A stretch of 64,000 nucleotides of DNA from Alteromonas macleodii ATCC 27126 (GTDB lineage: Bacteria; Pseudomonadota; Gammaproteobacteria; Enterobacterales; Alteromonadaceae), in assembly GCF_000172635.2 (NCBI RefSeq), contig NC_018632.1:682001-746000 (forward strand), read 5' to 3'. A program made the translations under genes and the position numbers. Shown one piece after another: positions 5,514-22,101 of the stretch. Under the pieces are notes generated by a model that saw nothing but the letters and a program-made list of their open reading frames with translations, had not been told where the DNA came from and ran no database searches. Position 1 is the first letter of the stretch. Each line of letters starts with the position of its first letter.

Positions 5514-5702
5514 CGATAAACACACCCCTGTTACATCAGACCTTTTAAATCACCGACAACGCTTGGTAGTAGCTCACCTTTGCAACAATAACAGTCGGTT
5601 TTATGTAATTTCAAGAATATGCGTAATCGTATGAATAAACAAGATTATGTATTTAAACTTTGGAACAAGCTTGTATTAAACTTGACACATAAATGTAATC
5701 GT

Positions 5703-5720
5703 TTTAATAAAACTGTCACA
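5703..5720 (+). promoter_or_regulatory. Pho-box-like site upstream of phoB
   Basis: The sequence TTTAATAAAACTGTCACA has the layout of a PhoB site: two 7-bp half-sites separated by 4 bp, with a strong second half (TGTCACA) and a degenerate first half. A possible -10 (TAATAA, 5729-5734) follows 8 bp later, as in PhoB-activated promoters where the Pho box replaces the -35. It implies autoregulation of phoBR. A TTGACA at 5682-5687 is an alternative -35. Confidence 0.6.
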
Positions 5721-5767
5721 GACCACATTAATAATAACGGCGTTTAAAAATGAGCAGGAATATTACG

Positions 5768-6457
5768 ATGTCTCGTACAGTGTTGGTGGTTGAGGACGAA
5801 GCGCCTATCCGTGAAATGCTTAAGTTTGTGCTTGAGCAATCTGGTTTTAACATTATTGAAGCCGAAGATTTCGACATCGCGCAAGAAAAAATTTGCGAAC
5901 CTTACCCAGATTTAATCTTATTAGATTGGATGTTGCCGGGAGGAAGCGGTGTACAGCTAGCTAAAAGTTTAAAGCAGCACGAGTTTACTCGTGACATTCC
6001 CGTCATCATGCTTACAGCCCGTGGCGAGGAAGAAGACAAAATTCGCGGCCTGGATGCAGGTGCTGATGACTACGTTACTAAACCATTCTCGCCGAAAGAG
6101 CTTGTGGCAAGAATAAAAGCAGTGATGCGAAGAGTAACGCCTACATCAAGCGAGGAGCCCATTGAATTTAATGGTCTTAAACTTGAACCGGTATCACATC
6201 GCGTAATGGCGAATGAAGAACCGTTAGACATGGGGCCGACTGAATTTAAATTGTTGCACTTCTTTATGACGCACCCAGAACGTGTCTATAGCCGAGAGCT
6301 ACTGCTAGATAATGTTTGGGGAACCAATGTTTATGTAGAAGACAGAACGGTAGATGTACATATTCGACGTCTACGCAAAGCTATCTCTCGCCACGGACAT
6401 GATGCTATGATCCAAACAGTACGCGGCGCGGGTTACCGTTTTTCTACTAAGCTGTAA
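5768..6457 (+). CDS. phoB: Phosphate regulon response regulator PhoB
   Basis: PhoB is the DNA-binding response regulator of phosphate starvation. Its receiver domain carries acidic residues EDE at the start and the phosphoacceptor D53 in [12 protein letters not shown], plus [20 protein letters not shown] and KPFSPKEL, which are nearly identical to E. coli PhoB. A winged-helix OmpR-type output domain occupies about 125-229. An in-frame ATG at 5750 exists, but I choose the ATG at 5768. It has GCAGGAA at a suitable distance and gives 229 residues, the E. coli length. A Pho-box-like site lies upstream, and phoR follows after 100 bp. Confidence 0.96.
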
Positions 6458-7859: not shown

Positions 7860-7875
7860 CCCTAAGAGGCGAGAA

Positions 7876-8904
7876 GTGTTGGTGAGCAAAAAGCATGACA
7901 AGATGAAAGAGCAACGCTATCGCCTTTCAACGTTACTTTTAGTAATAGGCTTATTGTTACCATTTGGAACCCTGGCTGATTCTCAAAATACTCAAAGCTC
8001 GTCATCTGCTTCTGGTAGCTATCAAGTACCTGCCTATGAACGCAAGCCTGGGGTGGCAGGAAAAATATCCTCTGTTGGCTCAGACACGCTGGCAAACTTA
8101 ATGACCTTTTGGTCACAGGAGTTCAAAACTCTTTATCCTCAGGTCGGCTTTCAAATACAGGCGTCTGGTTCATCTACCGCTCCGCCGGCACTTATTGAAG
8201 GTACTGCCACCATAGGCCCTATGAGCCGGGAATTAAAGCCCAGTGAAATACGGGATTTTACGCGAACCCATGGTTACCCGCCTACGGTATTAAAAGTGGC
8301 AATGGATGCCATCGCCATTTTTGTGGATAGACGCAATCCGCTGCCGGGTATGACCCTTGAGCAAGTTGACGCGGTGTTTTCTGAAACCCAGTTTTGTGGC
8401 AGCAATACCGCCATTACCAATTGGTCTCAGCTCGGCGTTGACGATATAGGCTATCGTTCTCCTATCAGGCTGTACGGTCGAAATTCAGTATCGGGTACTT
8501 ACGGCTTGTTTAAAGTGATGGCGCTGTGCGATGGTGACTTTAAGAATACGGTAAACGAACAACCTGGCTCTGCATCTGTAGTATTGTCCGTGGCCAGCGG
8601 TACAGGCGCGATTGGCTATGCCGCTTACGGTTATAAAACCGCAGGAGTTCGCGCTCTGCCTTTAGGTGAGTCGCTAGACAGCTTAATCCCTCTTTCTATT
8701 GATACGGTGCGCAACGAAACGTATCCGTTTGCCCGGTTTCTTTATTTAGTGATAAATAAAAAGCCCGGTGAGCCTTTACCTACTCTGGAAAGGGAGTTTT
8801 TGCGCTATATCTTGTCACAGGAAGGGCAGCAGCAGGTGTTAAGAGACGGATATTTCCCCATTCGTGAAGACGTACTGGTACGCCAACGTCGATTATTGGA
8901 ATAG
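7876..8904 (+). CDS. PstS-family phosphate-binding protein
   Basis: This is a periplasmic substrate-binding protein of the phosphate ABC-transporter type. After a signal peptide (hydrophobic stretch LSTLLLVIGLLLPFGTLA), it shows the PstS-like SVGSDTLANLM, the phosphate-binding loop ASGSSTAPPALIEG, MDAIAIFVDRRNP, RNSVSGTYGLF and SGTGAIGYA. The start is uncertain. GTG at 7876 or 7882 follows AAGAGG, and an ATG at 7903 is also in frame; all lead into the same signal peptide. It follows phoR by only 16 bases, so co-transcription with phoBR is likely. No permease or ATPase genes (pstCAB) are adjacent, so it either serves transporters elsewhere or acts in sensing. Confidence 0.85.
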   Translation: MLVSKKHDKMKEQRYRLSTLLLVIGLLLPFGTLADSQNTQSSSSASGSYQVPAYERKPGVAGKISSVGSDTLANLMTFWSQEFKTLYPQVGFQIQASGSSTAPPALIEGTATIGPMSRELKPSEIRDFTRTHGYPPTVLKVAMDAIAIFVDRRNPLPGMTLEQVDAVFSETQFCGSNTAITNWSQLGVDDIGYRSPIRLYGRNSVSGTYGLFKVMALCDGDFKNTVNEQPGSASVVLSVASGTGAIGYAAYGYKTAGVRALPLGESLDSLIPLSIDTVRNETYPFARFLYLVINKKPGEPLPTLEREFLRYILSQEGQQQVLRDGYFPIREDVLVRQRRLLE

Positions 8905-8957: not shown

Positions 8958-9758
8958 GTGTCGTATATGCCGCCAGCGTGGAAACAATGGGTTGTCAAAT
9001 GCCTGCTATCAGGGACAGCTGTGCCAACTATCGTGACAACCCTAGCGGAAAACGGTTTTTCTCCCGACACTATTAAAAAAGTGCTCGGCGCCAATTTGCC
9101 CACTAATTATCAGTTTTCACCCTCTTCAAGTTTCTACGAGAAGCTAGCAAAAAGTGCTATCGCCCGCGTGGAGCAGGCTAAGCCGCTTGCCGAGCCCAGT
9201 GACATTCAGCTCTTCTCGTACGATGACTTCTTGAGCAGCCAAGAGTGTGACGACATTGTTGCTCTGACCAAAGATAAACTCGCGCCCTCTAAATTGGCAG
9301 GAGCCGCTAGCGCTGATGACATTAGAACCTCTTCAACATGTGAATTAGCCTTTCTTGGTAATAAGCTAGTCAAAGACGTTGATAATCGCATTGTTTCAAC
9401 CCTTAGTTTGGGCGTGGGAGAAGGAGAAGTTATTCAGGCCCAGCACTACAATGTTGGGGAATATTACAAACCTCACTACGACTTCTTTCCTCCAGGAAGC
9501 CCGCAGTACAAAGCGCATTGTCTATCGCGTGGTCAGCGAACGTGGACATGCATGATTTACTTGAATGATGAATGTGACGGCGGTCACACCCGCTTCACCA
9601 AGCTAGATATTGCAGTAAAACCGAAAAAGGGAATGGCACTCTTTTGGAATAATTTGCTGCCCTCTGGCGACCCCAACCTTAACAGTATTCATTTCGCAGA
9701 ACCTGTCACTCGTGGTCACAAAACTGTCATAACCAAATGGTTTAGAACGAAAAACTAA
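8958..9758 (+). CDS. Prolyl 4-hydroxylase-like 2-oxoglutarate/Fe(II) dioxygenase
   Basis: The C-terminal ~180 residues form a P4H-type double-stranded beta-helix. The iron ligands are visible as H173 and D175 (KPHYDFF) and H245 (SIHFAEPV), and K255 (HKTVITKW) should bind 2-oxoglutarate. The conserved LFSYDDFLSSQECD segment marks the domain start. The first ~70 residues are a helical region seen in some bacterial P4H proteins. There is no signal peptide, so it should act in the cytoplasm. The GTG at 8958 follows AAAGGA; an ATG at 8967 is also possible. It sits inside the phosphate block, 53 bp after the PstS-like gene. Its substrate is unknown. Confidence 0.88.
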   Translation: MSYMPPAWKQWVVKCLLSGTAVPTIVTTLAENGFSPDTIKKVLGANLPTNYQFSPSSSFYEKLAKSAIARVEQAKPLAEPSDIQLFSYDDFLSSQECDDIVALTKDKLAPSKLAGAASADDIRTSSTCELAFLGNKLVKDVDNRIVSTLSLGVGEGEVIQAQHYNVGEYYKPHYDFFPPGSPQYKAHCLSRGQRTWTCMIYLNDECDGGHTRFTKLDIAVKPKKGMALFWNNLLPSGDPNLNSIHFAEPVTRGHKTVITKWFRTKN

Positions 9759-9887
9759 ACACCTCAGGCCATGCTTTTAGTTTTATTTTTAATCAATCTT
9801 GTTTTATCTAATTGAAAAGTAATAGCTTTACGCTGGCTTTAGTTCAAAGCTGAAAAAGTTCAAATAAATTCGATAAGTTTTTTACTT

Positions 9888-9905
9888 TGTAACAAAAATG
9901 TCACC
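9888..9905 (+). promoter_or_regulatory. Pho-box-like site upstream of the triple-repeat lipoprotein gene
   Basis: TGTAACAAAAATGTCACC has two recognisable PhoB half-sites (TGTAACA and TGTCACC) with the canonical 4-bp spacer. A possible -10 element, TACTCT at 9915-9920, starts 9 bp after the box. The gene start is 45 bp further on with a clear GGAG ribosome site. This is the best match to a Pho box in the window. Confidence 0.72.
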
Positions 9906-9964
9906 GATCTCCTTTACTCTCTAGCAAACCTTAGAATCCGTATTACAAAAATCTGGAGAATTTA

Positions 9965-12900
9965 ATGGAAATTCGTAACATATTTAAGGTAAGTGCTATC
10001 ACGACTGCGCTTGTCCTTGCAGGCTGTGGCGGTGACATCAATATTAATGAAGGTGATGAAGTAGTAACAACTCCAACAACACCAACTACACCTACAACAC
10101 CAACAACACCGACTACCCCTGATGTAGATACGCCGTTCTCTCTAGGCTTTGCCACAGACGTATCAAGCGAATTCTCAGGAACGATTACAGATAAGCCTGT
10201 TTATCGTTTAGATACCGATTTAACTATCACTCAAGATATGACGTTAACGAACGATGCTCACTGGATCATCAAAGGTCGTACGGCGGTTGGTAACGACAAC
10301 GCTGATGCAGCGGTACTAACTATTCAAGAAGGTACAACAGTAATCGGCGAAGACGGCGATGACTTCTTAGTTGTTCGTCGTGGCTCTCAAATTGACGCAT
10401 CTGGTACGTCTTCAGCGCCTATCGTGATGACATCGGTACAGGACGTTACTGGTGAAGAAACTTCAATCGGTCAGTGGGGCGGTGTAGTTCTACTTGGTAA
10501 CGCACCGACTAACCTTTGTAATACGGGTGACGATGCAGATACGTCTGACGAAGAACTTGCAAACTGTGGTGTTTCTGCAGAAGGTGATGCAGGTCTTTAC
10601 GGCGGTAATAACCCAGAAGATAACTCAGGTACGCTAGAGTACGTTGTAGTTAAGCATGCGGGTAAAGCTCTGGCATCAGGCGACGAGCTAAACGGTATTT
10701 CATTCGCTGGTATCGGTTCAGGCACCACAGTTAACTATATTCAGGTTCACCAAAACCTCGATGACGGTATTGAATTCTTCGGTGGTACAGTTAACGTAAG
10801 TAATGTTGTACTTACTGATATCGGTGACGATTCACTAGATTGGTCATTTGGCTGGACTGGTAGCGCAACTAACGTTTATATCCAACAGTCAGCTGACGGT
10901 GGCGACAACGCAATCGAAGCGGATAACAACGAAGATAATCCGTCTTGGTTGCCGCTAACTAAGCCAACTATTTCAAACGTGACTATTGTTAGTGCAGACA
11001 ACACCAATGGTGTACGTCTACGTAACGGTACAGCGGGCGTGCTTTCAAACGTTCTAGTAACGGGTTCTGCACTTGCAAACAACTGCCTACGTGTAAACGG
11101 TGATGAAGCAATTGCTAACGCTGAGTCGGGCGAGCTTTCTATCACTGATTCAATTGTTGCGTGTGAAACACCTGCGAACAACTTTGGTTCTGACACCATT
11201 AACGGTGGCACTACTCAAGCATGGTTTGAAGGCCAAGATGGCAACAGCGTTTTAGCTGCGTCTGCATTAATGCTTGAAGACAACGGTTACTTCCCAACGG
11301 CCTCTTCTCCTGTAGCACTTGGCGGCGGTCAATATATTGGTGCATTCAATCCTAACGGCACAGACTGGACTGTAGGTTGGACGGTAGGCGTAAACGGCGG
11401 TTTCCCAACTGACGTTCAAAACGCATTTGCACAAGGTCTAGCAACAGACGTATCGGCTGACTTCGACCTAGACAAGCCGGTTTACGAAATTGCTGCAGAC
11501 ACCACATTCACATCTGACGTTACACTTACTAACGATGCTTACTGGCTAATTAAAGGCCGTACTGCAGTAGGTAACGATAACGAAGACAGCGCAACACTAT
11601 ACATCGAACAAGGTACGACTGTGTTTGGTGAGCAAGGTGATGACTTCTTGGTAGTACGTCGTGGCTCAATGATTGAAGCTAACGGTACAGCAAGCGCACC
11701 TATCACGTTTACCTCTGTACAAGACCTTATCGGTGACGAAACGGGTATCGGCCAATGGGGCGGTATCGTACTTCTAGGTAATGCACCAACTAACCTATGT
11801 AATACCGGTGACGATTCAGATACCTCTGACGCTGAACTTGCTTCATGTGGTGTGGCTGCTGAAGGTGACGCGGGTCTTTACGGCGGTAATAACCCTGCAG
11901 ATAGCACAGGTTCACTTCGCTACGTAGTAGTTAAGCACGCAGGCCGCGCTCTTGCAGCGGGTGACGAGCTAAACGGTATTTCATTTGCAGGTATCGGTTC
12001 AGGTACTAAAGTTGAGTACATTCAAGTTCATCAAAACCTTGATGACGGTATTGAATTCTTTGGCGGTACAGTTAGCGTACGTAACGTTGTACTTACTGAT
12101 ATCGGTGATGACTCGCTAGATTGGTCTTTCGGTTGGACAGGTAACGCGCAAAACGTTTATATCCAACAATCAGCTGCTGGTGGCGACAACGCTATTGAAG
12201 CGGATAATAACGAAGACAACCCAGCGTGGCTTCCACTCACTAAGCCTACTATTTCTAACGTGACTATCGTTGGCGCTGACACAACTAACGGCGTTCGTCT
12301 ACGCAACGGTACTGCGGGTAACATCCGCAATCTAGTTGTTACAGCTGGTGAAGGCTACTCTAACTGCCTACGAGTTAACGGCGACGAGTCGATTGCTAAC
12401 GCAGTATCTGGCGAGCTTTCTGTAGAACATTCAGTGGTTGCTTGTGAAGCAGGTAATAACTTTGGTTCAGACGCTATCGGTGGTGGTACTACTCAAACAT
12501 GGTTCGAAGGCCAAACAGGTAACAGCGTGCTTACCGCTGATGCACTAATGCTTTCTAACGATGGATTTACACCTCGCTCTGGCTCACCACTTCTTGGTGC
12601 GGGCGTTGATGTATCAGAAGAGAATGACTTCTTCGCAGCAACTGACTATATCGGTGCATTTGACGGTGACAACAACTGGATGGACGGTTGGACTGTTGCG
12701 GTAAACGATAGCATTCCTGCTGACGTTACAACGGCACTAGAGCAAGGCTTGGCGACCGACGTGTCTGCTAGCTTCCCAGATATTACTGACAAGCCTGTTT
12801 ATCAGCTTGCTACTGACACCGTGTTTACTGCTGATGTATCGCTAACTAACGATGCTCACTGGCTAATTAAAGGTCGTACAGCGGTAGGTAACGACAACGC

Positions 12901-14035
12901 TGACAGCGCTTCACTTTACATTCAGCGCGGTACTACAGTATTCGGTGAAGATGGTGATGATTTCTTAGTTGTTCGTCGTGGCTCTAAGATTGAAGCGTCT
13001 GGTACTGCAACACTGCCAATTACCTTCACATCTTCAGAAGATATGACTGGCGGCGAAACAGCCATCGGCCAATGGGGCGGCCTAGTTATTCTAGGTAACG
13101 CACCAACAAACCTATGTAACACAGGTGACGACGGTGATACGTCTGAAGCTGAACTGGCTAACTGTGGTGTAGCCGCAGAAGGTGATGCAGGCCTATACGG
13201 TGGTGCAGACAGTGAAGATAGCTCAGGTACGCTTCGCTACGTTATCGTGAAGCACGCAGGTAAAGCACTTGCGGCAGGTGATGAGCTAAACGGTATTTCA
13301 TTTGCGGGTGTAGGTAGCGGCACTGAAGTTGACTTCATCCAAGTTCACCAAAACCTAGATGATGGCGTTGAGTTCTTCGGCGGTACAGTAAACGTAAGTC
13401 ACTTAGTATTAACTGCTATCGGTGATGATTCTCTAGACTGGTCATTCGGTTGGACAGGTAAGGCGCAGTACGTAGTTATCAAGCAAGATGCAGCGGGCGG
13501 CGACAATGCGTTCGAAGCTGACAACAACGAAGATAACCCTGCGTGGACACCATTGACGACACCAACAGTATCTAACGTAACAATTTTAGGTGCAGACAAT
13601 ACAAACGGTGTACGTCTTCGCAACGGTACAGCGGGAACAATCAAAAACCTAGTGGTTACCGGTGGCGCAAACTACAGCAACTGCCTACGAGTGAATGGTG
13701 ATGAATCAATTGCTAACGCAGCAGCAGGTTCACTAACTGTGACACACTCAACAGTAGCATGTTCATCTGCGAGCGCATTTGGTTCAGACACAATTGGTAC
13801 AGACAGCACGCAAGCGTGGTTTGAAGGTCAAGACGGCAACAGCGTTCTTGCTGAAACTGCAGCACTTGGCTTTGATTCAACAGGTTTCGTACCTGCAAGC
13901 AATTCAGTTTTATTAGGTTCAGGCTTCGACGCTTCTACTTTGGACGCTTTCTTTGATAGCACAGACTTCCAAGGTGCATTCGACGGTGAGTCTGACTGGA
14001 CACTGGGTTGGGTAACTGTTGGTCTTCAAGACTAA
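9965..14035 (+). CDS. Large lipoprotein of three tandem beta-helix-like repeats
   Basis: This 1356-residue protein has a lipoprotein signal (LVLAGC, lipidated C21), a Thr-Pro linker (TTPTTPTTPTTP, about residues 34-52), and three homologous repeats starting near residues 61, 491 and 928, each about 430 residues. Every repeat has the same order of motifs: ATDVS, LIKGRTAVGNDN, DDFLVVRRGS, GQWGG(V/I/L)V(L/I)LGNAPTNLC, an acidic Cys-containing segment, HQNLDDG(I/V)EFFGGTV, DDSLDWSFGWTG, FEADNNEDNP-like, and GVRLRNGTAG. These resemble proteins found in Bacteroidota next to TonB-dependent receptors, probably right-handed parallel beta-helices. Paired cysteines suggest disulfides. It lies behind a Pho-box-like site and ahead of a receptor gene, so a surface or periplasmic role in uptake under phosphate starvation is likely. 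No enzymatic motif was recognised. Confidence 0.85.
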   Translation: MEIRNIFKVSAITTALVLAGCGGDININEGDEVVTTPTTPTTPTTPTTPTTPDVDTPFSLGFATDVSSEFSGTITDKPVYRLDTDLTITQDMTLTNDAHWIIKGRTAVGNDNADAAVLTIQEGTTVIGEDGDDFLVVRRGSQIDASGTSSAPIVMTSVQDVTGEETSIGQWGGVVLLGNAPTNLCNTGDDADTSDEELANCGVSAEGDAGLYGGNNPEDNSGTLEYVVVKHAGKALASGDELNGISFAGIGSGTTVNYIQVHQNLDDGIEFFGGTVNVSNVVLTDIGDDSLDWSFGWTGSATNVYIQQSADGGDNAIEADNNEDNPSWLPLTKPTISNVTIVSADNTNGVRLRNGTAGVLSNVLVTGSALANNCLRVNGDEAIANAESGELSITDSIVACETPANNFGSDTINGGTTQAWFEGQDGNSVLAASALMLEDNGYFPTASSPVALGGGQYIGAFNPNGTDWTVGWTVGVNGGFPTDVQNAFAQGLATDVSADFDLDKPVYEIAADTTFTSDVTLTNDAYWLIKGRTAVGNDNEDSATLYIEQGTTVFGEQGDDFLVVRRGSMIEANGTASAPITFTSVQDLIGDETGIGQWGGIVLLGNAPTNLCNTGDDSDTSDAELASCGVAAEGDAGLYGGNNPADSTGSLRYVVVKHAGRALAAGDELNGISFAGIGSGTKVEYIQVHQNLDDGIEFFGGTVSVRNVVLTDIGDDSLDWSFGWTGNAQNVYIQQSAAGGDNAIEADNNEDNPAWLPLTKPTISNVTIVGADTTNGVRLRNGTAGNIRNLVVTAGEGYSNCLRVNGDESIANAVSGELSVEHSVVACEAGNNFGSDAIGGGTTQTWFEGQTGNSVLTADALMLSNDGFTPRSGSPLLGAGVDVSEENDFFAATDYIGAFDGDNNWMDGWTVAVNDSIPADVTTALEQGLATDVSASFPDITDKPVYQLATDTVFTADVSLTNDAHWLIKGRTAVGNDNADSASLYIQRGTTVFGEDGDDFLVVRRGSKIEASGTATLPITFTSSEDMTGGETAIGQWGGLVILGNAPTNLCNTGDDGDTSEAELANCGVAAEGDAGLYGGADSEDSSGTLRYVIVKHAGKALAAGDELNGISFAGVGSGTEVDFIQVHQNLDDGVEFFGGTVNVSHLVLTAIGDDSLDWSFGWTGKAQYVVIKQDAAGGDNAFEADNNEDNPAWTPLTTPTVSNVTILGADNTNGVRLRNGTAGTIKNLVVTGGANYSNCLRVNGDESIANAAAGSLTVTHSTVACSSASAFGSDTIGTDSTQAWFEGQDGNSVLAETAALGFDSTGFVPASNSVLLGSGFDASTLDAFFDSTDFQGAFDGESDWTLGWVTVGLQD
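10064..10120 (+). repeat. Thr-Pro coding microrepeat (linker of lipoprotein)
   Basis: A run of ACA/ACT/CCA-type codons encodes (TTP)n directly after the lipidated N-terminus. It is likely a flexible tether and may vary in length between strains. Confidence 0.7.
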
Positions 14036-14056
14036 TAAGTGAATGCGAGACACAGT

Positions 14057-14086
14057 AAAGCTAAGGCGTTTTTACGCCTTAGCTTT
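14057..14086 (+). terminator. Intercistronic hairpin/terminator between lipoprotein and receptor genes
   Basis: A perfect 13-bp stem (14057-14069 with 14074-14086) with a TTTT loop is followed by a short T tract. No Pho box or clear promoter is seen between it and the receptor gene at 14132. It may therefore be a partial terminator that lowers receptor expression relative to the lipoprotein. Confidence 0.75.
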
Positions 14087-14131
14087 TGTGTAAGCGCAGC
14101 TACCTGATTACAGTTTCTTAGGAGTTACACA

Positions 14132-16828
14132 ATGAAAAACAATCAAACGTCAGCATTTAAAGTCGGTGGACTTTCGCTGGCTATCGCGTCCATTCTTGGC
14201 GCAAGCGCGTTACCGTTATCAGCAGTAGCACAGCAGTCAGAAGACGAACTAATTGAAGAAGTCGTTGCTACGGGCACGCGACTTAAAGGAACCGCAACGG
14301 CTGTTTTACAAGAGCGTCAAAATCAGGCGTTCGTTGCTGATATTCTTGGCGCAGAACAAATTTCTCGTACCGGTGACGGCGATGCCGCTGCTGCACTTCG
14401 ACGTGTAACAGGTCTTACGCTAGTTGACGGTAAATTTATTTACGTTCGTGGTTTAGGTGAGCGCTATTCAAGCACACAGCTAAATGGCATGACGGTACCA
14501 AGTCCGGATCCTACGCGCTCGGTTGTACCGCTTGATTTATTCCCATCAAGTATCATCGAAAGCCTGAACGTTCAGAAATCTTACTCACCCAATATGCCTG
14601 GGCACTTTGGTGGTGGTAACGTAAACATTCGTACTAAATCAATCCCATCTGAGTTTGTATTCAACGTAAGTGCAGGTGGCGGTTGGAATACGCAGAACAG
14701 CGATACTGGTGTTTTCTATTCTGGTGGCGGCGATGATTGGACAGGTCGTGATGACGGTACTCGTGCACTGCCTGACATTATCAGCTCGGGTCTTGCTGCA
14801 AATGGTTCTGCAGGCTTCGAGGGTGACCGTACAAGAACACTGGCTGAAACGCAGGATATCCTAAGTTCATTTAACTGGGACATCGGCCCAGACGAAAAGT
14901 CTGTAGACCCGAACTTCAGCTTGGGTACGACCATTGGTAACAATTACGTTTTCGACAACGACTCTGTACTTGGTTTCCTTGCAACGGTTTCTTACAGCAA
15001 TGAATGGACAGTTGCCGAAGAGATGTTAGGTAACGATATTGGTGGTGGTCAGGAAAATCCACGTTTCACTAAATATCGCGACATGGTGTCTACTGAGCAA
15101 AACGTGCGTTGGAGCGGTATGTTCAACGTAGGTTACGAGTACAACAGCAATCACAAAGTAGAACTTGTGAACATGATCCTTCACGACATGCGTGACCGTG
15201 TTCGCGATGGATACTACTTTGACGAAAGTGAATCTAACCCTGGCGTGGAAGAATTCCGCCGCATGGATATCATTTTCGAAGAGCGTGAAATGGTTTCTTC
15301 ACAGCTTAAAGGCACGCACAACTTCCTTAACTTGTTAGATGGTGTGTTTTTCGATTGGTACGTGGGAACTAGCCGTGCGTCTCGTGAAGCGCCAGATATC
15401 ATGGAAGTAACATTCCAGCAGTTCTACGATGAGTCGGGTGCATTAGAGCTTGAGCGTCTTGATGATACGCCAGGAACTAACCTTAACCGCCAATATCAGG
15501 TGCTTTATGATGAGTCTGATACCTATGGCTTCAACGTGTCTACCGCGTTCTTCGGCGATGGCTACGACGTTGAACTTAAAGCCGGTATGGATTACTACGA
15601 CAAAACCCGTGACGGTAACAATATTGACTTAGCGGTGCGTCACTTTGGTATTTCTTCTGACTTTAAAGAAGGTAGCCGTTTGAATGAAATTTTCTCACAA
15701 GAAAATATCTATAACGACGACTTCTACACCAGCTCAACGGGTCGTTCTGTGTTTCAGGACAATACAGGTGCAGGTGATAAGTACTCAGCGGCAACTAAAC
15801 TTACCGCAGGCTATTTCATGGTTGATGCATTTTTCAACCAGAAGTTCCGCGTAAGTGGCGGTGCTCGTTATGAAGACTTCCAGCAAGTATCGATTCCATT
15901 TATCGAGCACTCGGATAAGTTTGCTGACGACACTGATGCCATCATTGACAGCATCTACAATGAATCTGATGTACTACCGTCATTAGCTTTCACTTATATC
16001 CCAAGTGAAGAAATGCAGTATCGCTTTAACATCAGTCAAACGCTAATCCGTCCTGACTTACGCGATATCAGCTCAACCTTCTTTATCGACCCGCTAACAG
16101 AATTCCTTGTACGTGGTTCTCCTTCATTGGTTGAAACTGAATTGACGAATATCGACTTCCGCTGGGAGTGGTATATGTCACAAGGTAACAACTTGTCTGT
16201 TGCACTTTTCTATAAAGATATGGAAAACCCTATCGAGATGGTGCAATTTGACGGCGGTGAAGGTGTACCTCAACTATTAACGGCTAACGGACAGGAAGGT
16301 GAGCTGTACGGTATCGAGTTTGAATTCTTGCACGACCTTGGCTTTATTAGTGATAACTTCAGTAACTTCTTTGTATCAGGAAACATGACGCTTTCTGACT
16401 CAGAAGTAACTATTGGTAGTGGCGACCAAGAATCACTGTTCTCTCAGCAGGCTCGTGAAGCATACGGCGGTACTATCACGGCGACCATTACTAACGACAA
16501 ACGTCGCCTAGTGGGTCACTCAGAATGGGTTGCTAACCTTCAACTAGGTTGGGATTCTGATAACGGTGAGCATTCAGCGTCATTAGTCTATAACTCATTC
16601 GGTGAACGTATCATTGCGCCTGGCGTACGTGGTTTTGAAGATGGTATTGAAAAACCGTTCCATTCATTGGATGCCGTTTATACTTACTATCCAGACTTCA
16701 ACACTACGATTAAATTACGTGTGCAAAACATTTTCAACGACGAGAAAGAAATTGAGCAAGAAGGTCTTACGCTGCGTAAGCTAAGCGTGGGTACAGGTAT
16801 AAACGCTTCAATTACTTATAACTTCTAA
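14132..16828 (+). CDS. TonB-dependent outer-membrane receptor
   Basis: This 898-residue protein begins with a signal peptide cleaved after about residue 33 (AVA-QQS). A possible TonB-box region (ELIEEVVATGTR) follows, then a plug domain (about 50-170) with VRGLGERYSSTQLNGM and ending in GGNVNIRTK. A long 22-strand barrel region ends in a terminal Phe (SITYNF), the normal outer-membrane assembly signal. A good ribosome site (TAGGAG) precedes the ATG. It lies 96 bp behind the triple-repeat lipoprotein and ahead of a Pho-boxed TonB operon, so the natural reading is a receptor for a phosphorus-containing ligand. The ligand itself cannot be read from sequence. Confidence 0.93.
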   Translation: MKNNQTSAFKVGGLSLAIASILGASALPLSAVAQQSEDELIEEVVATGTRLKGTATAVLQERQNQAFVADILGAEQISRTGDGDAAAALRRVTGLTLVDGKFIYVRGLGERYSSTQLNGMTVPSPDPTRSVVPLDLFPSSIIESLNVQKSYSPNMPGHFGGGNVNIRTKSIPSEFVFNVSAGGGWNTQNSDTGVFYSGGGDDWTGRDDGTRALPDIISSGLAANGSAGFEGDRTRTLAETQDILSSFNWDIGPDEKSVDPNFSLGTTIGNNYVFDNDSVLGFLATVSYSNEWTVAEEMLGNDIGGGQENPRFTKYRDMVSTEQNVRWSGMFNVGYEYNSNHKVELVNMILHDMRDRVRDGYYFDESESNPGVEEFRRMDIIFEEREMVSSQLKGTHNFLNLLDGVFFDWYVGTSRASREAPDIMEVTFQQFYDESGALELERLDDTPGTNLNRQYQVLYDESDTYGFNVSTAFFGDGYDVELKAGMDYYDKTRDGNNIDLAVRHFGISSDFKEGSRLNEIFSQENIYNDDFYTSSTGRSVFQDNTGAGDKYSAATKLTAGYFMVDAFFNQKFRVSGGARYEDFQQVSIPFIEHSDKFADDTDAIIDSIYNESDVLPSLAFTYIPSEEMQYRFNISQTLIRPDLRDISSTFFIDPLTEFLVRGSPSLVETELTNIDFRWEWYMSQGNNLSVALFYKDMENPIEMVQFDGGEGVPQLLTANGQEGELYGIEFEFLHDLGFISDNFSNFFVSGNMTLSDSEVTIGSGDQESLFSQQAREAYGGTITATITNDKRRLVGHSEWVANLQLGWDSDNGEHSASLVYNSFGERIIAPGVRGFEDGIEKPFHSLDAVYTYYPDFNTTIKLRVQNIFNDEKEIEQEGLTLRKLSVGTGINASITYNF

Positions 16829-16879
16829 GAAAATACAGCCAGTGCTGCTTCTTCAAAAACAGAGCAGCAACAATCATCT

Positions 16880-16906
16880 AAAGCCCGGTTTTCTTGCCGG
16901 GCTTTT
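16880..16906 (+). terminator. Rho-independent terminator after the TonB-dependent receptor
   Basis: A 9-bp GC-rich stem (16880-16888 with 16897-16905) is followed by TTTTC. It separates the lipoprotein-receptor unit from the TonB operon, which has its own Pho-box-like promoter. Confidence 0.8.
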
Positions 16907-16942
16907 CTATTTGTGACAATAGTCATCGATTTATGACAGTTT

Positions 16943-16960
16943 CGTAATAAAACTGTCACA
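16943..16960 (+). promoter_or_regulatory. Pho-box-like site upstream of the TonB2-type operon
   Basis: CGTAATAAAACTGTCACA ends in the same TGTCACA half-site, with the same AAAC spacer, as the site before phoB. A TATCCT -10 candidate (16970-16975) starts 9 bp later, the same spacing as at the lipoprotein promoter. It implies that the whole TonB operon is induced by PhoB. Confidence 0.68.
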
Positions 16961-17035
16961 GAAAACTCCTATCCTACGCGCAGAAATTTATAGTCGGATA
17001 CAACCGATTTCTTTTAACTTTAAAGGTTTGAATGT

Positions 17036-17794
17036 ATGAAGCTTATCAATGCCTTGCTTGTGGCAGGTGCGCTAGCAGCGACACCCGTGCTTGCACAAGA
17101 CGATGAAGTCTTAAAACCCGTTGTCGATGAGGCAGCGAAAATAAACGAGTCAGCGGCGAAATCGCAAGAAAAGATTAACGGTATTACCGATCAAATCGAC
17201 AGCAAACTTCAACAGTTCAAAACATTGATGAAAGAAATCGAAGGCCTTGAGGTTTATAACACTCAGCTTCGTAAGCAAATCAATAACCAAGAACAAGAAA
17301 TGGCAGACCTAAATGCTGCTATCGATGAAGTGTCTGTTGTTGAGCGTCAAATCACACCACTAATGATGCGCATGATTGACGGCCTAGAGCAGTTTGTTGC
17401 GCTAGACGTACCATTCCTTCCAGAAGAGCGCGCGAATCGCGTTGCTGACCTTCGCGCTATGATGGACCGTGCCGACGTTGCTGCGTCTGAGAAATTCCGC
17501 CGCGTAATGGAAGCGTATCAAGTAGAGATGGACTACGGCCGCACTATGGAAGCGTACAGCGGTATTCATTCAATTAACGGTCAAGAGCGTGACGTTGAAT
17601 TCCTACGCCTTGGTCGCACAGCGCTAATTTATCAAACACGTGATGCAAGCATGCAGGGTGTTTGGAACAAGCAAACTCGTCAGTGGGAAGAGCTTGATAG
17701 CAGCTACCGTACACAAATTACAAAAGGTCTGCGCATGGCGAAGAAGCAACTTGCACCAGACTTGCTAATGCTGCCAGTGGCAATTACAGACTAA
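17036..17794 (+). CDS. DUF3450-family periplasmic coiled-coil protein
   Basis: The 252-residue product has a cleavable signal peptide (cut after A20, PVLA-QDD) followed by a long heptad-rich stretch (about 25-105, with INNQEQEMADLNAAIDE), then a mixed region with RQWEELDSSYRTQI near the C-terminus. This matches DUF3450, a family that typically opens TonB2-type operons ahead of ttpC in Vibrio and relatives. It is thought to be a periplasmic accessory of the energy complex, but its exact function is not established. It is the first gene behind the Pho-box-like site at 16943, and the next gene follows within a few bases. Confidence 0.85.
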   Translation: MKLINALLVAGALAATPVLAQDDEVLKPVVDEAAKINESAAKSQEKINGITDQIDSKLQQFKTLMKEIEGLEVYNTQLRKQINNQEQEMADLNAAIDEVSVVERQITPLMMRMIDGLEQFVALDVPFLPEERANRVADLRAMMDRADVAASEKFRRVMEAYQVEMDYGRTMEAYSGIHSINGQERDVEFLRLGRTALIYQTRDASMQGVWNKQTRQWEELDSSYRTQITKGLRMAKKQLAPDLLMLPVAITD

Positions 17795-17807
17795 GAGGTT
17801 GATGAGA

Positions 17808-19172
17808 ATGTTTAACACAGTAAAACGTATCGCTGTTGGTCTAGCAGCCCTTAGCATCAGCGTTGGTGCTTTCGCACAAAGCGACCGTGCCATGGACTTA
17901 GACGCACTTCTTAAGCAACTAGAAGAAGGTCAGTTCGCACAGTCTCAGCAAAACAAACAGCGCGAGCGTGATTTCCAAGCGCAACGTGCAGAGCAAGATC
18001 GCATTCTTCGCGAAACTCGTGAAAAGCGCGACCAAATGCTTGCACAATCAGAGCAGCTTGAAACTCAGTTCGAAGAAAACGAATTCAAACTGGCTGACTT
18101 AAACGGTGCACTAGACACACGTCTTGGTTCACTTAAAGAGCTATTCGGTGTGCTTCAGCAAATCGCTGGCGACACCAAAAACAAATTCTATAACTCAGTG
18201 GTTTCTGCACAAATCCCTGGCCGTGCTGACTTCCTTGATAAGATGGCACAAGACATGGGTTCAAGCTCAAAACTTGCATCAATTGAAGAAATTGAGCGCG
18301 TTTGGTTTGAAATGCAACGCGAAATGACTGAAGCCGGCAAAGTCACTACGTTCAAGACAGACGTTGTTGAAGCGGGCGGTGAAAAAGTGAATAAGTCTGT
18401 TGTTCGCGTAGGTCCTTTTGCACTTGTTGCTGATGGTAAATACCTAGAGTACAACGGTGTAACAGGTACAGTATCTGAACTTGTACGTCAGCCTGCTGAC
18501 CGTTACATGGATTCTGCTGCTGAACTACAAGCATCAAGCGGTGAATTAGTGCAGTTCGGTATCGACCCAACGGGTGGTTCAATCCTAGGTCTTCTTGTTC
18601 AAGCGCCTAACCTTCAAGAGCGTGTAGAGCAGGGCGGTGTTGTAGGTTACATCATTCTTATCGTTGGTGCATTCGGTCTTCTACTTGCCCTTGAGCGTCT
18701 TGTAACGCTGACGCTTATTCGCATGAAAGTGAACAAACAGCTTAAGAGCAAAGAAGTAAACACAAACAATCCGCTTGGCCGTGTACTTAAAGTACGTGAC
18801 GAGCACCCAGACGCCGACGTTGAAGCACTTGAACTTCACCTTACAGAAGCGATTTTGGGCGAAGTGCCTAAGTTAGGTCGTAACCTAACTATCATTAAGA
18901 TTATCTCTGTTGTAGCACCGCTTATGGGTCTACTAGGTACGGTAACCGGTATGATCAACACCTTCCAGGCTATCACCTTGTTTGGTACGGGTGACCCGAA
19001 ACTGATGGCAGGTGGTATTTCAACAGCACTTGTAACAACAGTACTAGGTCTAGTTGTAGCGATTCCAATGACACTGCTTTATGCAATGCTTAACACACGT
19101 TCTAAGAACATTGTGTACATCCTACAAGAACAGGCGTCTGGCGTAATTGCAGAGCGCGCTGAGCGAGGCTAA
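17808..19172 (+). CDS. ttpC: TtpC-like MotA/TolQ/ExbB proton-channel protein
   Basis: This long ExbB-like protein (454 residues from the ATG at 17808) has a signal peptide (cut after AFA23) and a periplasmic coiled-coil region (about 30-110). An ExbB/TolQ domain follows from about 270 with three membrane segments, including the conserved SVVAPLMGLLGTVTGMI and GGISTALVTTVLGL. TtpC in the Vibrio TonB2 system has this fusion-like layout and is needed together with ExbB2, ExbD2 and TonB2 for transport. The ATG at 17808 is preferred over 17802 or a TTG at 17799 because AGAGG is then nine bases away. exbB starts two bases after its stop. Confidence 0.88.
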   Translation: MFNTVKRIAVGLAALSISVGAFAQSDRAMDLDALLKQLEEGQFAQSQQNKQRERDFQAQRAEQDRILRETREKRDQMLAQSEQLETQFEENEFKLADLNGALDTRLGSLKELFGVLQQIAGDTKNKFYNSVVSAQIPGRADFLDKMAQDMGSSSKLASIEEIERVWFEMQREMTEAGKVTTFKTDVVEAGGEKVNKSVVRVGPFALVADGKYLEYNGVTGTVSELVRQPADRYMDSAAELQASSGELVQFGIDPTGGSILGLLVQAPNLQERVEQGGVVGYIILIVGAFGLLLALERLVTLTLIRMKVNKQLKSKEVNTNNPLGRVLKVRDEHPDADVEALELHLTEAILGEVPKLGRNLTIIKIISVVAPLMGLLGTVTGMINTFQAITLFGTGDPKLMAGGISTALVTTVLGLVVAIPMTLLYAMLNTRSKNIVYILQEQASGVIAERAERG

Positions 19173-19174
19173 TC

Positions 19175-19693
19175 ATGATCGAGTTTCTAGAAGCAATTCG
19201 CGATTTCACAGAAACAGGTGGCCAGGTTCTCCTGGTCATCGGTCTGCTGATATTCGTTATGTGGCTTTTGATCCTCGAGCGTGCGATGTATCTGATGGTT
19301 TGGCACAAGCAAGCCAAGAAAGAAGCGATAGCAATGTGGACAGCACGTGCCGATCGCTCTTCTTGGTTCGCAGAGCAGGTTCGTCAGAAAACAATTTCAC
19401 AGTTAACCATGCGCCTAAACGGCAGCATCCCAATTATCCAGTCACTGGTTGCGCTTTGTCCGCTGCTAGGCTTGATGGGAACGGTTACCGGTATGATTGA
19501 AGTGTTCGATGTAATGGCGATTGCGGGCTCAGGTAATGCTCGTTCAATGGCCTCAGGTGTATCGAAAGCCACTATCCCCACAATGGCGGGCATGGTTGGC
19601 GCACTTTCAGGCGTATTCGCCGCTACCTGGTTAACTCGTATGGTGAAATCAGAACGCACGCATCTTGAGGATGCATTGATTATTCAACGTTAA
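19175..19693 (+). CDS. exbB: ExbB-type TonB energy-transduction protein
   Basis: This short ExbB (172 residues) has a membrane helix near the N-terminus (VLLVIGLLIFVMWLLILERAM) and two more in the conserved C-terminal half, with CPLLGLMGTVTGMIEVFD and GVSKATIPTMAGMVGALSG. With ExbD it forms the inner-membrane proton channel that drives TonB. The small size and lack of a long N-terminal extension fit ExbB2 of TonB2 systems, where TtpC is a separate partner. It lies directly downstream of ttpC in one operon. Confidence 0.93.
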   Translation: MIEFLEAIRDFTETGGQVLLVIGLLIFVMWLLILERAMYLMVWHKQAKKEAIAMWTARADRSSWFAEQVRQKTISQLTMRLNGSIPIIQSLVALCPLLGLMGTVTGMIEVFDVMAIAGSGNARSMASGVSKATIPTMAGMVGALSGVFAATWLTRMVKSERTHLEDALIIQR

Positions 19694-19725
19694 TGCTAGC
19701 TAAGCGTTAAGGTAAGGTATTTATT

Positions 19726-20133
19726 ATGAAGCAGCACTTTCAAAACTTAGTCGATGAAGAAGAAGCAGCCATCGACATGACGCCCATGCTGGACGTTGTA
19801 TTTATCATGTTGATCTTCTTCATTGTGACTGCGTCATTTGTGAAAGAAGCAGGTATCGATGTTAACCGTCCAGAAGCAGCAACTGCTGTGAAAAAGGATC
19901 GCGCTAATATCCTTATCGCTATTTCAGATAAAGGCGAAATTTGGATTAACAAGCGCCGTATCGACGTTCGCGCAGTGCAAGCGAACATTGAGCGTCTTCG
20001 CGCAGAAAACCCACAGGGTTCTGTTGTAATTCAGGCTGACAAAAAAGCCACAACAGAAACACTGATTAAGGTTATGGACGCGTCGCGAGCCGCTGGCGTT
20101 TACGATGTTTCGATTGCAGCCCAAGAGCAATAA
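19726..20133 (+). CDS. exbD: ExbD-type biopolymer transport protein
   Basis: The 135-residue protein has a short cytoplasmic N-terminus and a single membrane helix carrying the essential aspartate in DMTPMLDVVFIMLIFF. A periplasmic ExbD/TolR domain follows. It pairs with ExbB to couple proton flow to TonB. It lies 32 bp after exbB and three bases before tonB. Confidence 0.94.
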   Translation: MKQHFQNLVDEEEAAIDMTPMLDVVFIMLIFFIVTASFVKEAGIDVNRPEAATAVKKDRANILIAISDKGEIWINKRRIDVRAVQANIERLRAENPQGSVVIQADKKATTETLIKVMDASRAAGVYDVSIAAQEQ

Positions 20134-20136
20134 ATC

Positions 20137-20745
20137 ATGCCACGATATTTAATCGCATTTGTTATTTCCCTTGCGATCACGTTAGGCCTGTTCTTCTTGA
20201 TGCAATCGCTTATCAAGATGGGTGGCAGCGCACTAACTGAGCCGCCTAAGGGAAGCGTGCTTGACTTCGTAAGGGTTAAGCAGGATGAACAGGTTGAGAA
20301 AAAAGATCGTAAGCCGAAGAAGCCACCTAAGCCTGAAGAGCCGCCACCGCAAATGGAGCAGCCTCAAATGGACTCACCTTCTCCAGATGCAGAAGGTACG
20401 TCGATGGACTTTGGTGCTGAAGTAGGAGACGACATCTCGCTAGAAGGCGGGTTGGCCCTCGAATCCGGTGACGGTGAATATCTTCCTATTGTTAAGGTTG
20501 CGCCAGTGTATCCACGACGTGCACTTCAACGGGGTATTGAAGGTTTCGTTATTGTTGAATTTACAGTAACTAAACAAGGCGCAGTACGCGACCCAATTGT
20601 TGTTGAAGCTAACCCTTCAGGTATTTTTGAACAAGCGGCGATTGATGCGGCAATGAAGTTCAAATATAAGCCTCGAGTGGTAAATGGCGAAGCAACGGAA
20701 GTGTCTGGTGTACAAAACCGTATTACGTTCCAAATTGACGGGTAA
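20137..20745 (+). CDS. tonB: TonB energy transducer (TonB2 type)
   Basis: A 202-residue TonB has one N-terminal membrane anchor (about 4-25), a short Lys/Pro/Glu-rich periplasmic spacer (about 50-75, KPKKPPKPEEPPPQ), and a C-terminal TonB domain (about 115-202) with VAPVYPRRALQRGIEGFVIV and FEQAAIDAAMKFKYKPR. It transmits force from ExbB/ExbD to outer-membrane receptors. The short spacer is typical of TonB2 proteins. Its place in a Pho-boxed operon next to a receptor suggests it is dedicated to phosphorus-related transport, although TonBs can serve several receptors. Confidence 0.93.
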   Translation: MPRYLIAFVISLAITLGLFFLMQSLIKMGGSALTEPPKGSVLDFVRVKQDEQVEKKDRKPKKPPKPEEPPPQMEQPQMDSPSPDAEGTSMDFGAEVGDDISLEGGLALESGDGEYLPIVKVAPVYPRRALQRGIEGFVIVEFTVTKQGAVRDPIVVEANPSGIFEQAAIDAAMKFKYKPRVVNGEATEVSGVQNRITFQIDG

Positions 20746-20751
20746 CAGAAC

Positions 20752-22101
20752 ATGATGAGAAAACAGACGAATACATTGCTTAGTGCACTGGCGTTTGCAT
20801 TTGCATCGGCCACAGTATCTGTACCTACTATGTTCATTGCTTCTAACGCTACAGCGCAAGAGGCTGAGCAGCAAGATGGACAAGAGATAAAAGCTAGCGA
20901 TAAGCAAACCCGTCGCGTGCCTACGCTTCGCGGTAAAGTCTACGAGCAGCTAGCCCGTGCACAAACGGCTGCTGATGAAGCGGGCAATGTAGAAGAAGCT
21001 ATTTCCATTTTGAAAGAAGTGGAAGATAAGTCTCATTCTATGAACGCCTACGAAAAAGCGATGATGTACAATTTTTTCGGCTTCATTTATTACAACAACG
21101 AAGACTATGCAAAAGCGTTGGAGTCGTTTGCCAAGGTAGTAGAGCAACAGCCTATTCCTGAAAAGTTCGAAATGACTACACTTTTCAGTTTGGCGCAGCT
21201 TAACCTTATGCAGGGTAATTACGACGATACCATCACTTACTTAGAGCGTTGGGAAAGTCTTAATGCGGGCCCTGTGCCGGTGAAAAACAAAGTCATCAAG
21301 GCCCAAGCGTACTATCAGAATAAGCAGTACGAGCAAGCCGCAACGTGGATTTCTGAAGCCGTTGCCGACCACGAAGCAGAAGGCATGATTCCCGATGAAG
21401 GGTGGTTAATTCTTCAGCGTGCTATTTTCTATGAACTCAAGCAGCCTCAAAAGGTTAAAGACGTTCTGGTTAAAATGGTGAAGCTATTTGACGAGCCTAA
21501 GTATTGGATCCAGCTAGCGGGTATGTACGGTGAGCTAGGCGAAGAGCGCAAGCAGTTGGCTATTATGGAAACCGCTTATCAGCGCGGGTTCGTTAATACA
21601 TCCGCTGATGTGTTTAATATGGCGCAGCTTTATTACTATCATCGCGTACCTTACAAAGGTGCTAAGTTGATGGAGCAGGCGATGAACGACGGCGTGCTAG
21701 AGAAAAACTTGCGCAACCTTAAGTTCTTAGGCCAAAGCTGGTCACTTGCTAAAGAGCAAGACAAAGCCATTCCCGTTATGATGCAAGCGGCTGAACTGTC
21801 TGAAGACGGTGAGTTAGATGCACAGTTAGCGCAAATTCTTCTTAATGAAGAGCGTTTCGACGATGCAATTGCTGCGGCAGACCGAGCGGTTGAAAAGGGC
21901 GATTTGAGAAACCCTGGTTTGGTTTACCTAATTAAAGGCATGGCACTTTACAACAAGAAGCAATATGCCCTTGCGCTTAATCAGCTAGCTGAAGCAGAAA
22001 AGCATCAGAAGAGTCGTGCCATGGCACAGCAATGGAAGCAGTTTGTACAGGGCGAAAAGCGTCAGGCAGACGCCATTGCAGCTGAGCTAGGTACAAGTTA
22101 A
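20752..22101 (+). CDS. Secreted tetratricopeptide-repeat protein of the TonB2 operon
   Basis: The 449-residue protein starts with a signal peptide (hydrophobic stretch up to about residue 36, ATAQEAEQQ) and then consists of helical TPR-like repeats through most of its length, for example NNEDYAKALESFAKVVEQQP and NEERFDDAIAAADRAVEKGD. Such periplasmic TPR proteins close TonB2-type operons in Vibrio and other marine gammaproteobacteria. They are presumed to be scaffolds for the energy complex, but their function is not well established. It follows tonB by six bases and ends at a strong terminator. Confidence 0.87.
   Translation: MMRKQTNTLLSALAFAFASATVSVPTMFIASNATAQEAEQQDGQEIKASDKQTRRVPTLRGKVYEQLARAQTAADEAGNVEEAISILKEVEDKSHSMNAYEKAMMYNFFGFIYYNNEDYAKALESFAKVVEQQPIPEKFEMTTLFSLAQLNLMQGNYDDTITYLERWESLNAGPVPVKNKVIKAQAYYQNKQYEQAATWISEAVADHEAEGMIPDEGWLILQRAIFYELKQPQKVKDVLVKMVKLFDEPKYWIQLAGMYGELGEERKQLAIMETAYQRGFVNTSADVFNMAQLYYYHRVPYKGAKLMEQAMNDGVLEKNLRNLKFLGQSWSLAKEQDKAIPVMMQAAELSEDGELDAQLAQILLNEERFDDAIAAADRAVEKGDLRNPGLVYLIKGMALYNKKQYALALNQLAEAEKHQKSRAMAQQWKQFVQGEKRQADAIAAELGTS

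What the first reader, a model, noticed from the sequence alone, without database searches (positions are those of the whole stretch)
9888..22101. PhoB-linked triple-repeat lipoprotein, TonB-dependent receptor and dedicated TonB2 complex
Seen: Pho-box-like sites precede both the lipoprotein-receptor pair (9965-16828) and the DUF3450-TtpC-ExbB-ExbD-TonB-TPR operon (17036-22101), directly downstream of phoB-phoR and a PstS-like gene. Known: TonB-dependent receptors import ligands too large or rare for porins, and TonB2/TtpC systems in Vibrio are mostly linked to iron. Inference: this is a phosphate-starvation-induced outer-membrane uptake system for a phosphorus compound, with its own energy source and a giant surface or periplasmic lipoprotein as the binding or processing partner. 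The substrate is unknown, and I know of no described system with this exact set.
Basis: partly seen in the sequence, partly recalled or inferred. Interest (0 to 1): 0.88.

Follow-up and report, generated by a model that had tools for sequence, protein, structure and literature searches.

The report
Phosphate-starvation outer-membrane uptake cluster
A marine Alteromonas carries, beside its phosphate-sensing genes, a surface lipoprotein, an outer-membrane transporter and an extra inner-membrane motor, apparently switched on when phosphate runs out; the first two are a known kind, the phosphate-controlled motor is the new part.

Summary
The lipoprotein (LIP) and receptor (TBDR) are a deeply conserved pair: TBDR within 1.5 kb on the same strand in 114 of 130 loci. 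A Pho box precedes LIP in 63 of 125 loci and DUF3450 in 22 of 29 (reversed controls 1/125, 0/29). The pair is not undescribed: Caulobacter ElpS/CC_0171 (PMC2996285) and the phoBR-linked FII lipoprotein/TBDT of Flavobacterium johnsoniae (PMC8115612) are the same kind. A LIP repeat is predicted as a right-handed beta-helix (pLDDT 95.7). The newer part is the motor: its DUF3450 and TtpC proteins form clades apart from the Alteromonas paralogue and sampled Vibrionaceae/Aeromonas copies; it carries Pho boxes, also when not adjacent to LIP (5 of 5); at 52% identity or more it occurs only in LIP-bearing genomes (25 of 46 versus 0 of 249). Substrate, direction of transport and energy coupling remain inferred. 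New variant of a known kind.

The parts
5682..5719 (+). two Pho boxes in a row upstream of phoB (5682-5699 and 5702-5719)
   Evidence: 14.9 and 18.1 bits, ranks 5 and 4 in the window
5750..6457 (+). phoB
   Evidence: TIGR02154 over cut-off
6558..7859 (+). phoR
   Evidence: annotated phoR in the matching A. macleodii pBGP9 cluster
7843..8904 (+). PstS-like phosphate-binding protein (ORF as listed; the true start is probably later)
   Evidence: TIGR02136 over cut-off; only TIGR02136 match in the genome
8958..9758 (+). 2OG-Fe(II) oxygenase, variable companion
   Evidence: PF13640; present in only some relatives
9713..9730 (+). Pho-box-like site inside the 3' end of the oxygenase gene; best score of the window, function uncertain
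   Evidence: 21.6 bits
9887..9904 (+). Pho box of the lipoprotein gene
   Evidence: 20.7 bits
9965..14035 (+). LIP: ElpS/FII-type lipoprotein, three beta-helix repeats
10133..11401 (+). LIP repeat 1
11402..12709 (+). LIP repeat 2 (the unit modelled, pLDDT 95.7)
12710..14032 (+). LIP repeat 3
14057..14086 (+). 13-bp hairpin between LIP and TBDR, possible attenuator or 3'-end stabiliser
   Evidence: z = -5.16 for the 96-nt gap; hairpins by my own criterion in 30 of 89 gaps versus 24 of 445 random stretches; not listed by the standard terminator scan
14132..16828 (+). TonB-dependent receptor
   Evidence: PF00593 and PF07715; model, BtuB-like fold
16880..16905 (+). intrinsic-terminator-like hairpin after TBDR (10 pairs, 6 G-C)
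   Evidence: where the number of such sites in the region was not above shuffles
16942..16959 (+). Pho box of the TonB operon
   Evidence: 19.2 bits
17036..17794 (+). DUF3450 protein (TtpB type)
   Evidence: PF11932
17799..19172 (+). TtpC-type MotA/ExbB protein
   Evidence: PF01618; tree
19175..19693 (+). ExbB
   Evidence: PF01618
19726..20133 (+). ExbD
   Evidence: PF02472
20137..20745 (+). TonB
   Evidence: PF03544; one of 6 TonB_C matches in the genome
20752..22101 (+). TPR protein (TtpD type)
   Evidence: TPR families

Best explanation
A PhoB-controlled outer-membrane phosphorus-acquisition module. When phosphate falls, PhoB activates two promoters: one for the surface lipoprotein LIP (an ElpS/FII-type protein with three beta-helix domains on a Thr-Pro tether) and, by read-through past a hairpin, the receptor TBDR; and one for a six-gene TonB2-type motor. 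LIP binds, or helps to process, a large phosphorus-containing ligand at the cell surface; TBDR imports it; the operon's own TonB-ExbB-ExbD-TtpC complex supplies the energy; periplasmic phosphatases free the phosphate, which PstS and PstCAB take in. Shown by sequence: gene set, Pho boxes, conservation, predicted fold, separate motor clade. Inferred: PhoB binding here, surface location, ligand class, direction of transport, and that this motor drives this receptor.
For: Pho boxes of 12 bits or more: LIP 63/125, DUF3450 22/29, phoB 23/26, TBDR 1/121; reversed controls 1/125, 0/29, 0/26, 0/121. LIP keeps the box in 39 of 99 loci without phoB in the held DNA. Five motor operons that clearly lie apart from LIP (17-24 kb away in G031, G172, G183; another contig in G121, G272) all keep it (places). 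A phoB-like gene is in the held locus in 27 of 130 loci, in co-directional, divergent and downstream arrangements. In Myxococcota, Bdellovibrionota and other distant loci the exb/tonB genes lie between LIP and TBDR; in Pseudobacteriovorax a PhoX alkaline phosphatase is divergent from LIP, and in a deltaproteobacterial locus a PF01663 phosphodiesterase follows TBDR. Motor clade and co-occurrence. Published: ElpS is induced by phosphate starvation and, as data not shown, not by iron depletion (PMC2996285); FII and its TBDT sit in the phoBR operon and are induced by Pi depletion, with N and Fe limitation as contrasts (PMC8115612).
Against: 62 of 125 LIP upstream regions have no site of 12 bits or more, among them all 7 named Shewanella loci (best 8.3 bits; of 9 unnamed loci of that genus 2 reach 12), so PhoB control is not universal or uses a form the matrix misses. 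21 of 46 LIP-positive genomes lack the motor clade, so it is not required for the pair. Caulobacter CC_0171 was reported as constitutive, its deletion did not stop ElpS production, ElpS work pointed to phosphatase activation, and no change in intracellular phosphate was detected, perhaps for lack of sensitivity (PMC2996285). A hairpin stands between LIP and TBDR here, so their co-expression is not certain. No call tests transport or substrate.
Confidence: 0.68

Rival explanations
1. LIP is not part of an importer: as proposed for ElpS it activates, anchors or releases extracellular phosphatases, and TBDR is loosely coupled. The motor serves several Pho-regulated receptors.
For: ElpS overexpression raised extracellular alkaline phosphatase activity while ElpS itself had none, and CC_0171 was constitutive (PMC2996285). 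In Sphingomonas and unnamed relatives LIP-TBDR is followed by type II secretion genes. Hairpins separate LIP from TBDR in 30 of 89 gaps. The genome has 64 TBDR barrel matches for 6 TonB_C matches, so motors are shared.
Against: LIP and TBDR stay adjacent in 114 of 130 loci across phyla, and in 10 of the other 16 the exb/tonB genes lie between them or TBDR is divergent, which suggests joint work with an energised receptor.
Confidence: 0.2
2. The receptor takes up something other than a phosphorus compound that is scarce or useful under phosphate starvation, for example iron bound to phosphate, or a glycan.
Against: No Fur box above control upstream of LIP or DUF3450; neighbours in two distant loci include PhoX and a phosphodiesterase; relatives are induced by Pi depletion and not by Fe (PMC8115612).
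Confidence: 0.1
3. The DUF3450-TonB operon is an ordinary iron TonB2 system that happens to lie here.
For: Same six-gene order as Vibrio TonB2/TonB3 (PMC6957404). Fur boxes are also not clear at 4 of the 5 sampled non-LIP copies, so lack of one is weak evidence.
Against: Own clade apart from the Alteromonas paralogue and the Vibrionaceae/Aeromonas copies; Pho boxes in 22 of 29 LIP-linked copies and 0 of 10 other copies; found at 52% identity or more only in LIP-positive genomes.
Confidence: 0.03

Closest known systems
ElpS (CC_0170) and TBDR CC_0171 of Caulobacter crescentus (PMC2996285)
   Different: ElpS is about 50 kDa and T2SS-linked; here three repeats, phoBR and a TonB2-type motor adjacent. 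The ElpS sequence itself was not compared here.
Low-Pi lipoproteins FI/FII and their TBDTs in Flavobacterium johnsoniae, including the phoBR operon (PMC8115612)
   Same: Lipoprotein-TBDT pair beside phoBR; induced by Pi depletion; modelled there as polygalacturonase-like, in agreement with the beta-helix here; said there to be homologous to the Caulobacter protein.
   Different: Bacteroidota; the passages read (12 of 27 places) mention no dedicated TonB operon. FII was not compared here; other Bacteroidota homologues with adjacent TBDR were.
TonB2/TonB3 systems of Vibrio vulnificus (TtpB-TtpC-ExbB-ExbD-TonB-TtpD; PMC6957404)
   Same: Same six gene types in the same order; TonB3 has an outer-membrane receptor gene at its start and does not appear iron-regulated.
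   Different: TonB2 has a Fur box and serves iron uptake; the window operon has a Pho box and groups apart from the Vibrio copies sampled. V. vulnificus TonB3 itself was not in the trees.
PusCD / SusCD complexes (PMC8115612)
   Same: TonB-dependent transporter plus surface lipoprotein, Pi-induced.
   Different: LIP is predicted as a beta-helix; no SusD family matched.

Membership tests
ElpS/FII-type low-phosphate lipoprotein with partner TBDR | homologous lipoprotein next to a TBDR | tested here: met
   114 of 130 loci with TBDR within 1.5 kb on the same strand; profile matches in Sphingomonas with gsp genes and in Hymenobacter and Aureibacter
ElpS/FII-type low-phosphate lipoprotein with partner TBDR | direct sequence match to ElpS (CC_0170) or Fjoh_0546 | not tested
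   those named sequences were not retrieved; the link rests on synteny and on the papers' own statements
ElpS/FII-type low-phosphate lipoprotein with partner TBDR | induction by phosphate starvation | not testable with these tools
   only Pho boxes can be seen
Pho regulon (PhoB-controlled) | Pho box: two 7-bp repeats 11 bp apart, at a typical distance from the gene | tested here: met
   20.7 and 19.2 bits at 9887 and 16942; many LIP sites start 75-91 bp before ATG (first matrix)
Pho regulon (PhoB-controlled) | PhoB binding and dependence | not testable with these tools
   needs ChIP or mutants
TonB2-type system | DUF3450-TtpC-ExbB-ExbD-TonB-TPR operon | tested here: met
   gaps of 2-32 bp; gene types as in PMC6957404
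Iron (Fur-controlled) TonB2 system | Fur box upstream | tested here: not met
   best 11 of 19 at DUF3450 and at LIP, within the control range; Vibrio sp. THAF190c 15 of 19, but the other four non-LIP copies only 10-11
Iron (Fur-controlled) TonB2 system | groups with Vibrio TonB2-type proteins | tested here: not met
   31 LIP-linked TtpC rows form a starred clade (97/97) excluding 5 others (rows mostly from LIP loci); 25 DUF3450 rows split from 10 others at 100/99
TonB-dependent receptor | plug and barrel families | tested here: met
SusCD/PusCD | SusD-family lipoprotein | tested here: not met
   no SusD Pfam match in LIP; beta-helix model
Pectate lyase / polygalacturonase enzymes | family-level sequence match | tested here: not met
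   no such Pfam match for LIP at E 0.001; no PDB sequence match at E 0.1
Pectate lyase / polygalacturonase enzymes | right-handed beta-helix fold | tested here: met

The most novel reading that the evidence does not exclude
A dedicated phosphorus TonB machine: a lineage of TonB2-type motors under PhoB instead of Fur that drives, with an ElpS-type beta-helix lipoprotein and its receptor, active import of a phosphorylated polymer or oligomer, a proteobacterial counterpart of polysaccharide utilisation loci for phosphorus, with related clusters in Myxococcota, Bdellovibrionota and other phyla.
Probability: 0.4. Interest if true: 0.78.

Novelty: new variant of a known kind. Interest (0 to 1): 0.57.

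Why it matters
Phosphate limits growth in parts of the ocean, where much of the dissolved phosphorus is organic (recalled, from no call). Proteobacteria are usually thought to clip phosphate off outside the inner membrane and let it diffuse through porins. A Pho-regulated receptor with its own motor would mean that Alteromonas and relatives actively pull in large phosphorus compounds. It also gives a testable role for the widely found ElpS-type proteins and suggests that TonB2-type motors are not only iron machines.

Tried and rejected
Plain consensus searches for Pho boxes were uninformative and were replaced by a trained matrix. The first matrix was trained partly on wrongly oriented pstS loci, because loci of minus-strand matches are not flipped; one search showed this and I retrained with correct strands, leaving out six pstS loci in or near LIP loci. 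Counts quoted are unless stated; under the first matrix they were 60/125, 21/29, 22/26 and 1/121. The Pho columns and the random-stretch control used the first matrix. still guessed strands and misplaced two rows; searches use the strands. One operon (G194) could not be read and is left out; G234 and G244 are not counted as 'apart', because G234's LIP contig ends close by and G244's LIP lies just downstream of the operon.

Iron control was tested with the 19-bp Fur consensus and not supported. The idea that the pair is special to Alteromonas was rejected. Searches for solved relatives of LIP and of TBDR by sequence gave none. The TBDR model says only that it is an ordinary TonB-dependent transporter and did not help with the substrate. 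A control comparison of the TBDR profile with L266 proteins returned nothing and is not used. Of the recurrent neighbour clusters, only a few were put through Pfam (10 proteins): none was a phosphatase. Transcripts in papers: A. macleodii Te101 passages showed nothing on phosphate.

The 52% identity line was drawn after seeing a gap between 52% and 47%; three LIP-positive genomes sit at 46-47% and several LIP-negative ones at 43-45%. Eight near-identical loci (L153, L155, L156, L167, L175, L188, L198, L199) were dropped before the 130-locus count; near-duplicates were dropped by shared k-mers for the promoter counts.
Full report
What is there. The window lies in an Alteromonas genome close to A. 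macleodii (LIP repeat 99.3% and TtpC 99.8% identical to A. macleodii pBGP9; LIP repeat 98% to A. abrolhosensis). Downstream of phoB, phoR, a PstS-like gene and a 2OG oxygenase lie a 1356-aa lipoprotein (LIP), an 898-aa TonB-dependent receptor (TBDR) and a six-gene operon DUF3450-TtpC-ExbB-ExbD-TonB-TPR. Gaps inside the operon are 2-32 bp; gaps before LIP, TBDR and DUF3450 are 206, 96 and 207 bp.

Regulatory sites. The matrix was trained on 17 pstS-upstream sites of other Alteromonadaceae-family genomes; 7 of the 24 upstream regions used gave no site above 12 bits. Its consensus is TTGTCATAAAACTGTCAT, close to the Escherichia coli Pho box as I recall it. In the window its five best sites are 9713, 9887, 16942, 5702 and 5682. 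In the same genome it finds a 20.3-bit site just upstream of ppk and an 18.0-bit site before a gene whose start looks by eye like a Pit-type transporter (NCBIfam gave no match at the limit used). Across related loci a site of 12 bits or more precedes LIP in 63 of 125, DUF3450 in 22 of 29 and phoB in 23 of 26, but TBDR in only 1 of 121; reversed-sequence controls give 1/125, 0/29, 0/26 and 0/121. With phoB in the held locus LIP has a site in 24 of 26, without it in 39 of 99. Seven named Shewanella loci have none.

Conservation of the pair. LIP homologues occur in 46 of 295 genomes of the order and 51 of 398 of the phylum, with one, two or three repeats. Of 130 loci (8 near-duplicates dropped) 114 have TBDR within 1.5 kb on the same strand; in 10 more the exb/tonB genes lie between or TBDR is divergent; 6 show none, 3 of these cut or nearly cut by a contig end. 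A phoB-like gene lies in the held DNA in 27 of 130 and a TtpC-type gene in 41 of 130. The loci come from homology searches of limited scope, so these are shares of what was fetched, not of nature. Of seven distant response regulators checked, two pass the PhoB cut-off, one misses it by 0.1 bit, two have PhoB as best match below the cut-off, and two (L168, L169; not among the 27) are closer to other OmpR-family members. LIP-TBDR followed by type II secretion genes, the arrangement described for Caulobacter elpS, is seen in Sphingomonas parapaucimobilis and an unnamed relative, and a recurrent gene set of that kind recurs in about 11 loci by clustering (not each checked by Pfam). Bacteroidota plasmids carry the pair too.

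The motor. In a TtpC tree 31 LIP-linked gammaproteobacterial rows form a starred clade (97/97) that excludes the Alteromonas paralogue and Vibrio, Salinivibrio and Aeromonas copies; nearly all rows were taken from LIP loci, so exclusiveness is not fully tested. In a DUF3450 tree 25 rows (23 genomes with at least 52% identity, the window and Pseudoalteromonas THAF3) split from 10 others at 100/99; three of the 10 come from LIP-positive genomes whose copies are only 46-47% identical. DUF3450 of at least 52% identity is found in 25 of 46 LIP-positive and 0 of 249 LIP-negative genomes; these genomes are related, so the Fisher value overstates independence, but three f7 genomes outside the family have both genes as well. 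Of the 23 operons readable besides the window's, 17 have a site of 12 bits or more; the five that clearly lie apart from LIP all do; of the 10 other copies none does (best 5.3 bits). Fur-box matches upstream of LIP and DUF3450 are no better than in random stretches; among the five non-LIP copies only Vibrio sp. THAF190c shows a good one.

Fold. One LIP repeat modelled at pLDDT 95.7 is a right-handed beta-helix. Over 69 aligned repeats D214, D215, E218, D236, D237, D240 and E266 of the unit are invariant; their spacing would suit an acidic ladder on successive coils. That this is a metal or catalytic site is my inference.

A hairpin between LIP and TBDR. The 96-nt gap folds with z = -5.16. By my own criterion, hairpins ending in T-rich arms occur in 30 of 89 gaps against 24 of 445 random stretches; 59 gaps have none, and the standard scan does not list the window's one. 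With no Pho box before TBDR this suggests read-through with attenuation, giving more LIP than TBDR; a separate TBDR promoter is not excluded, and CC_0171 was reported as constitutive (PMC2996285).

Prior art. PMC2996285 (parts 1 and 2 of 6 and passages) reports ElpS. PMC8115612 (passages) reports the phoBR-operon TBDT and lipoprotein FII in Flavobacterium johnsoniae and their relation to the Caulobacter protein. PMC6957404 (passages) gives the TonB2 gene set and its Fur control. PMC11208175 (passages) places TonB-dependent receptors and the T2SS in the Caulobacter PhoB regulon. The listings of searches showed no paper that I recognised as describing a PhoB-controlled TtpC/DUF3450 TonB system; most subscription papers are not in that library.

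Verdict. What is added is the PhoB-linked motor clade, the spread across phyla, the beta-helix model and the intergenic hairpin. No call shows transport or substrate.

Noticed in passing
window 7843-8904 and L305 (G000:C1:836000-850000): The pstC-pstA-pstB-phoU cluster elsewhere in the genome shows no pstS among the ORFs I checked, and the window's PstS-like gene is the only TIGR02136 match in the genome (TIGR00975 was not searched), so it may be the working PstS of PstCAB.
   Followed up: partly
window 9713-9730: The best Pho-box score of the window lies inside the end of the 2OG-oxygenase gene, 252 bp before LIP; it could be a second PhoB site or a coding coincidence.
   Followed up: partly
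L262 (A. macleodii pBGP9): The whole phoBR-LIP-TBDR-TonB cluster is recorded on a 238-kb plasmid of A. macleodii BGP9, beside rdgC and near a Tn3-family transposase.
   Followed up: no
L152, L156, L159, L162, L177, L187, L188 (Shewanella): The LIP-TBDR pair is kept but no site of 12 bits precedes LIP (best 8.3), so these species may have lost or changed PhoB control.
   Followed up: partly
L303 (Hymenobacter plasmid) and L302 (Aureibacter plasmid): Bacteroidota LIP-TBDR pairs lie near a DNA/RNA non-specific endonuclease and a porin, and near a PI-specific phospholipase C domain protein, possible phosphorus scavengers.
   Followed up: no
G000:C1, L266: The genome has 64 TonB-dependent-receptor barrel matches and 6 TonB_C matches, and a second DUF3450-TtpC operon with neither a Pho box nor a clear Fur box.
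   Followed up: partly
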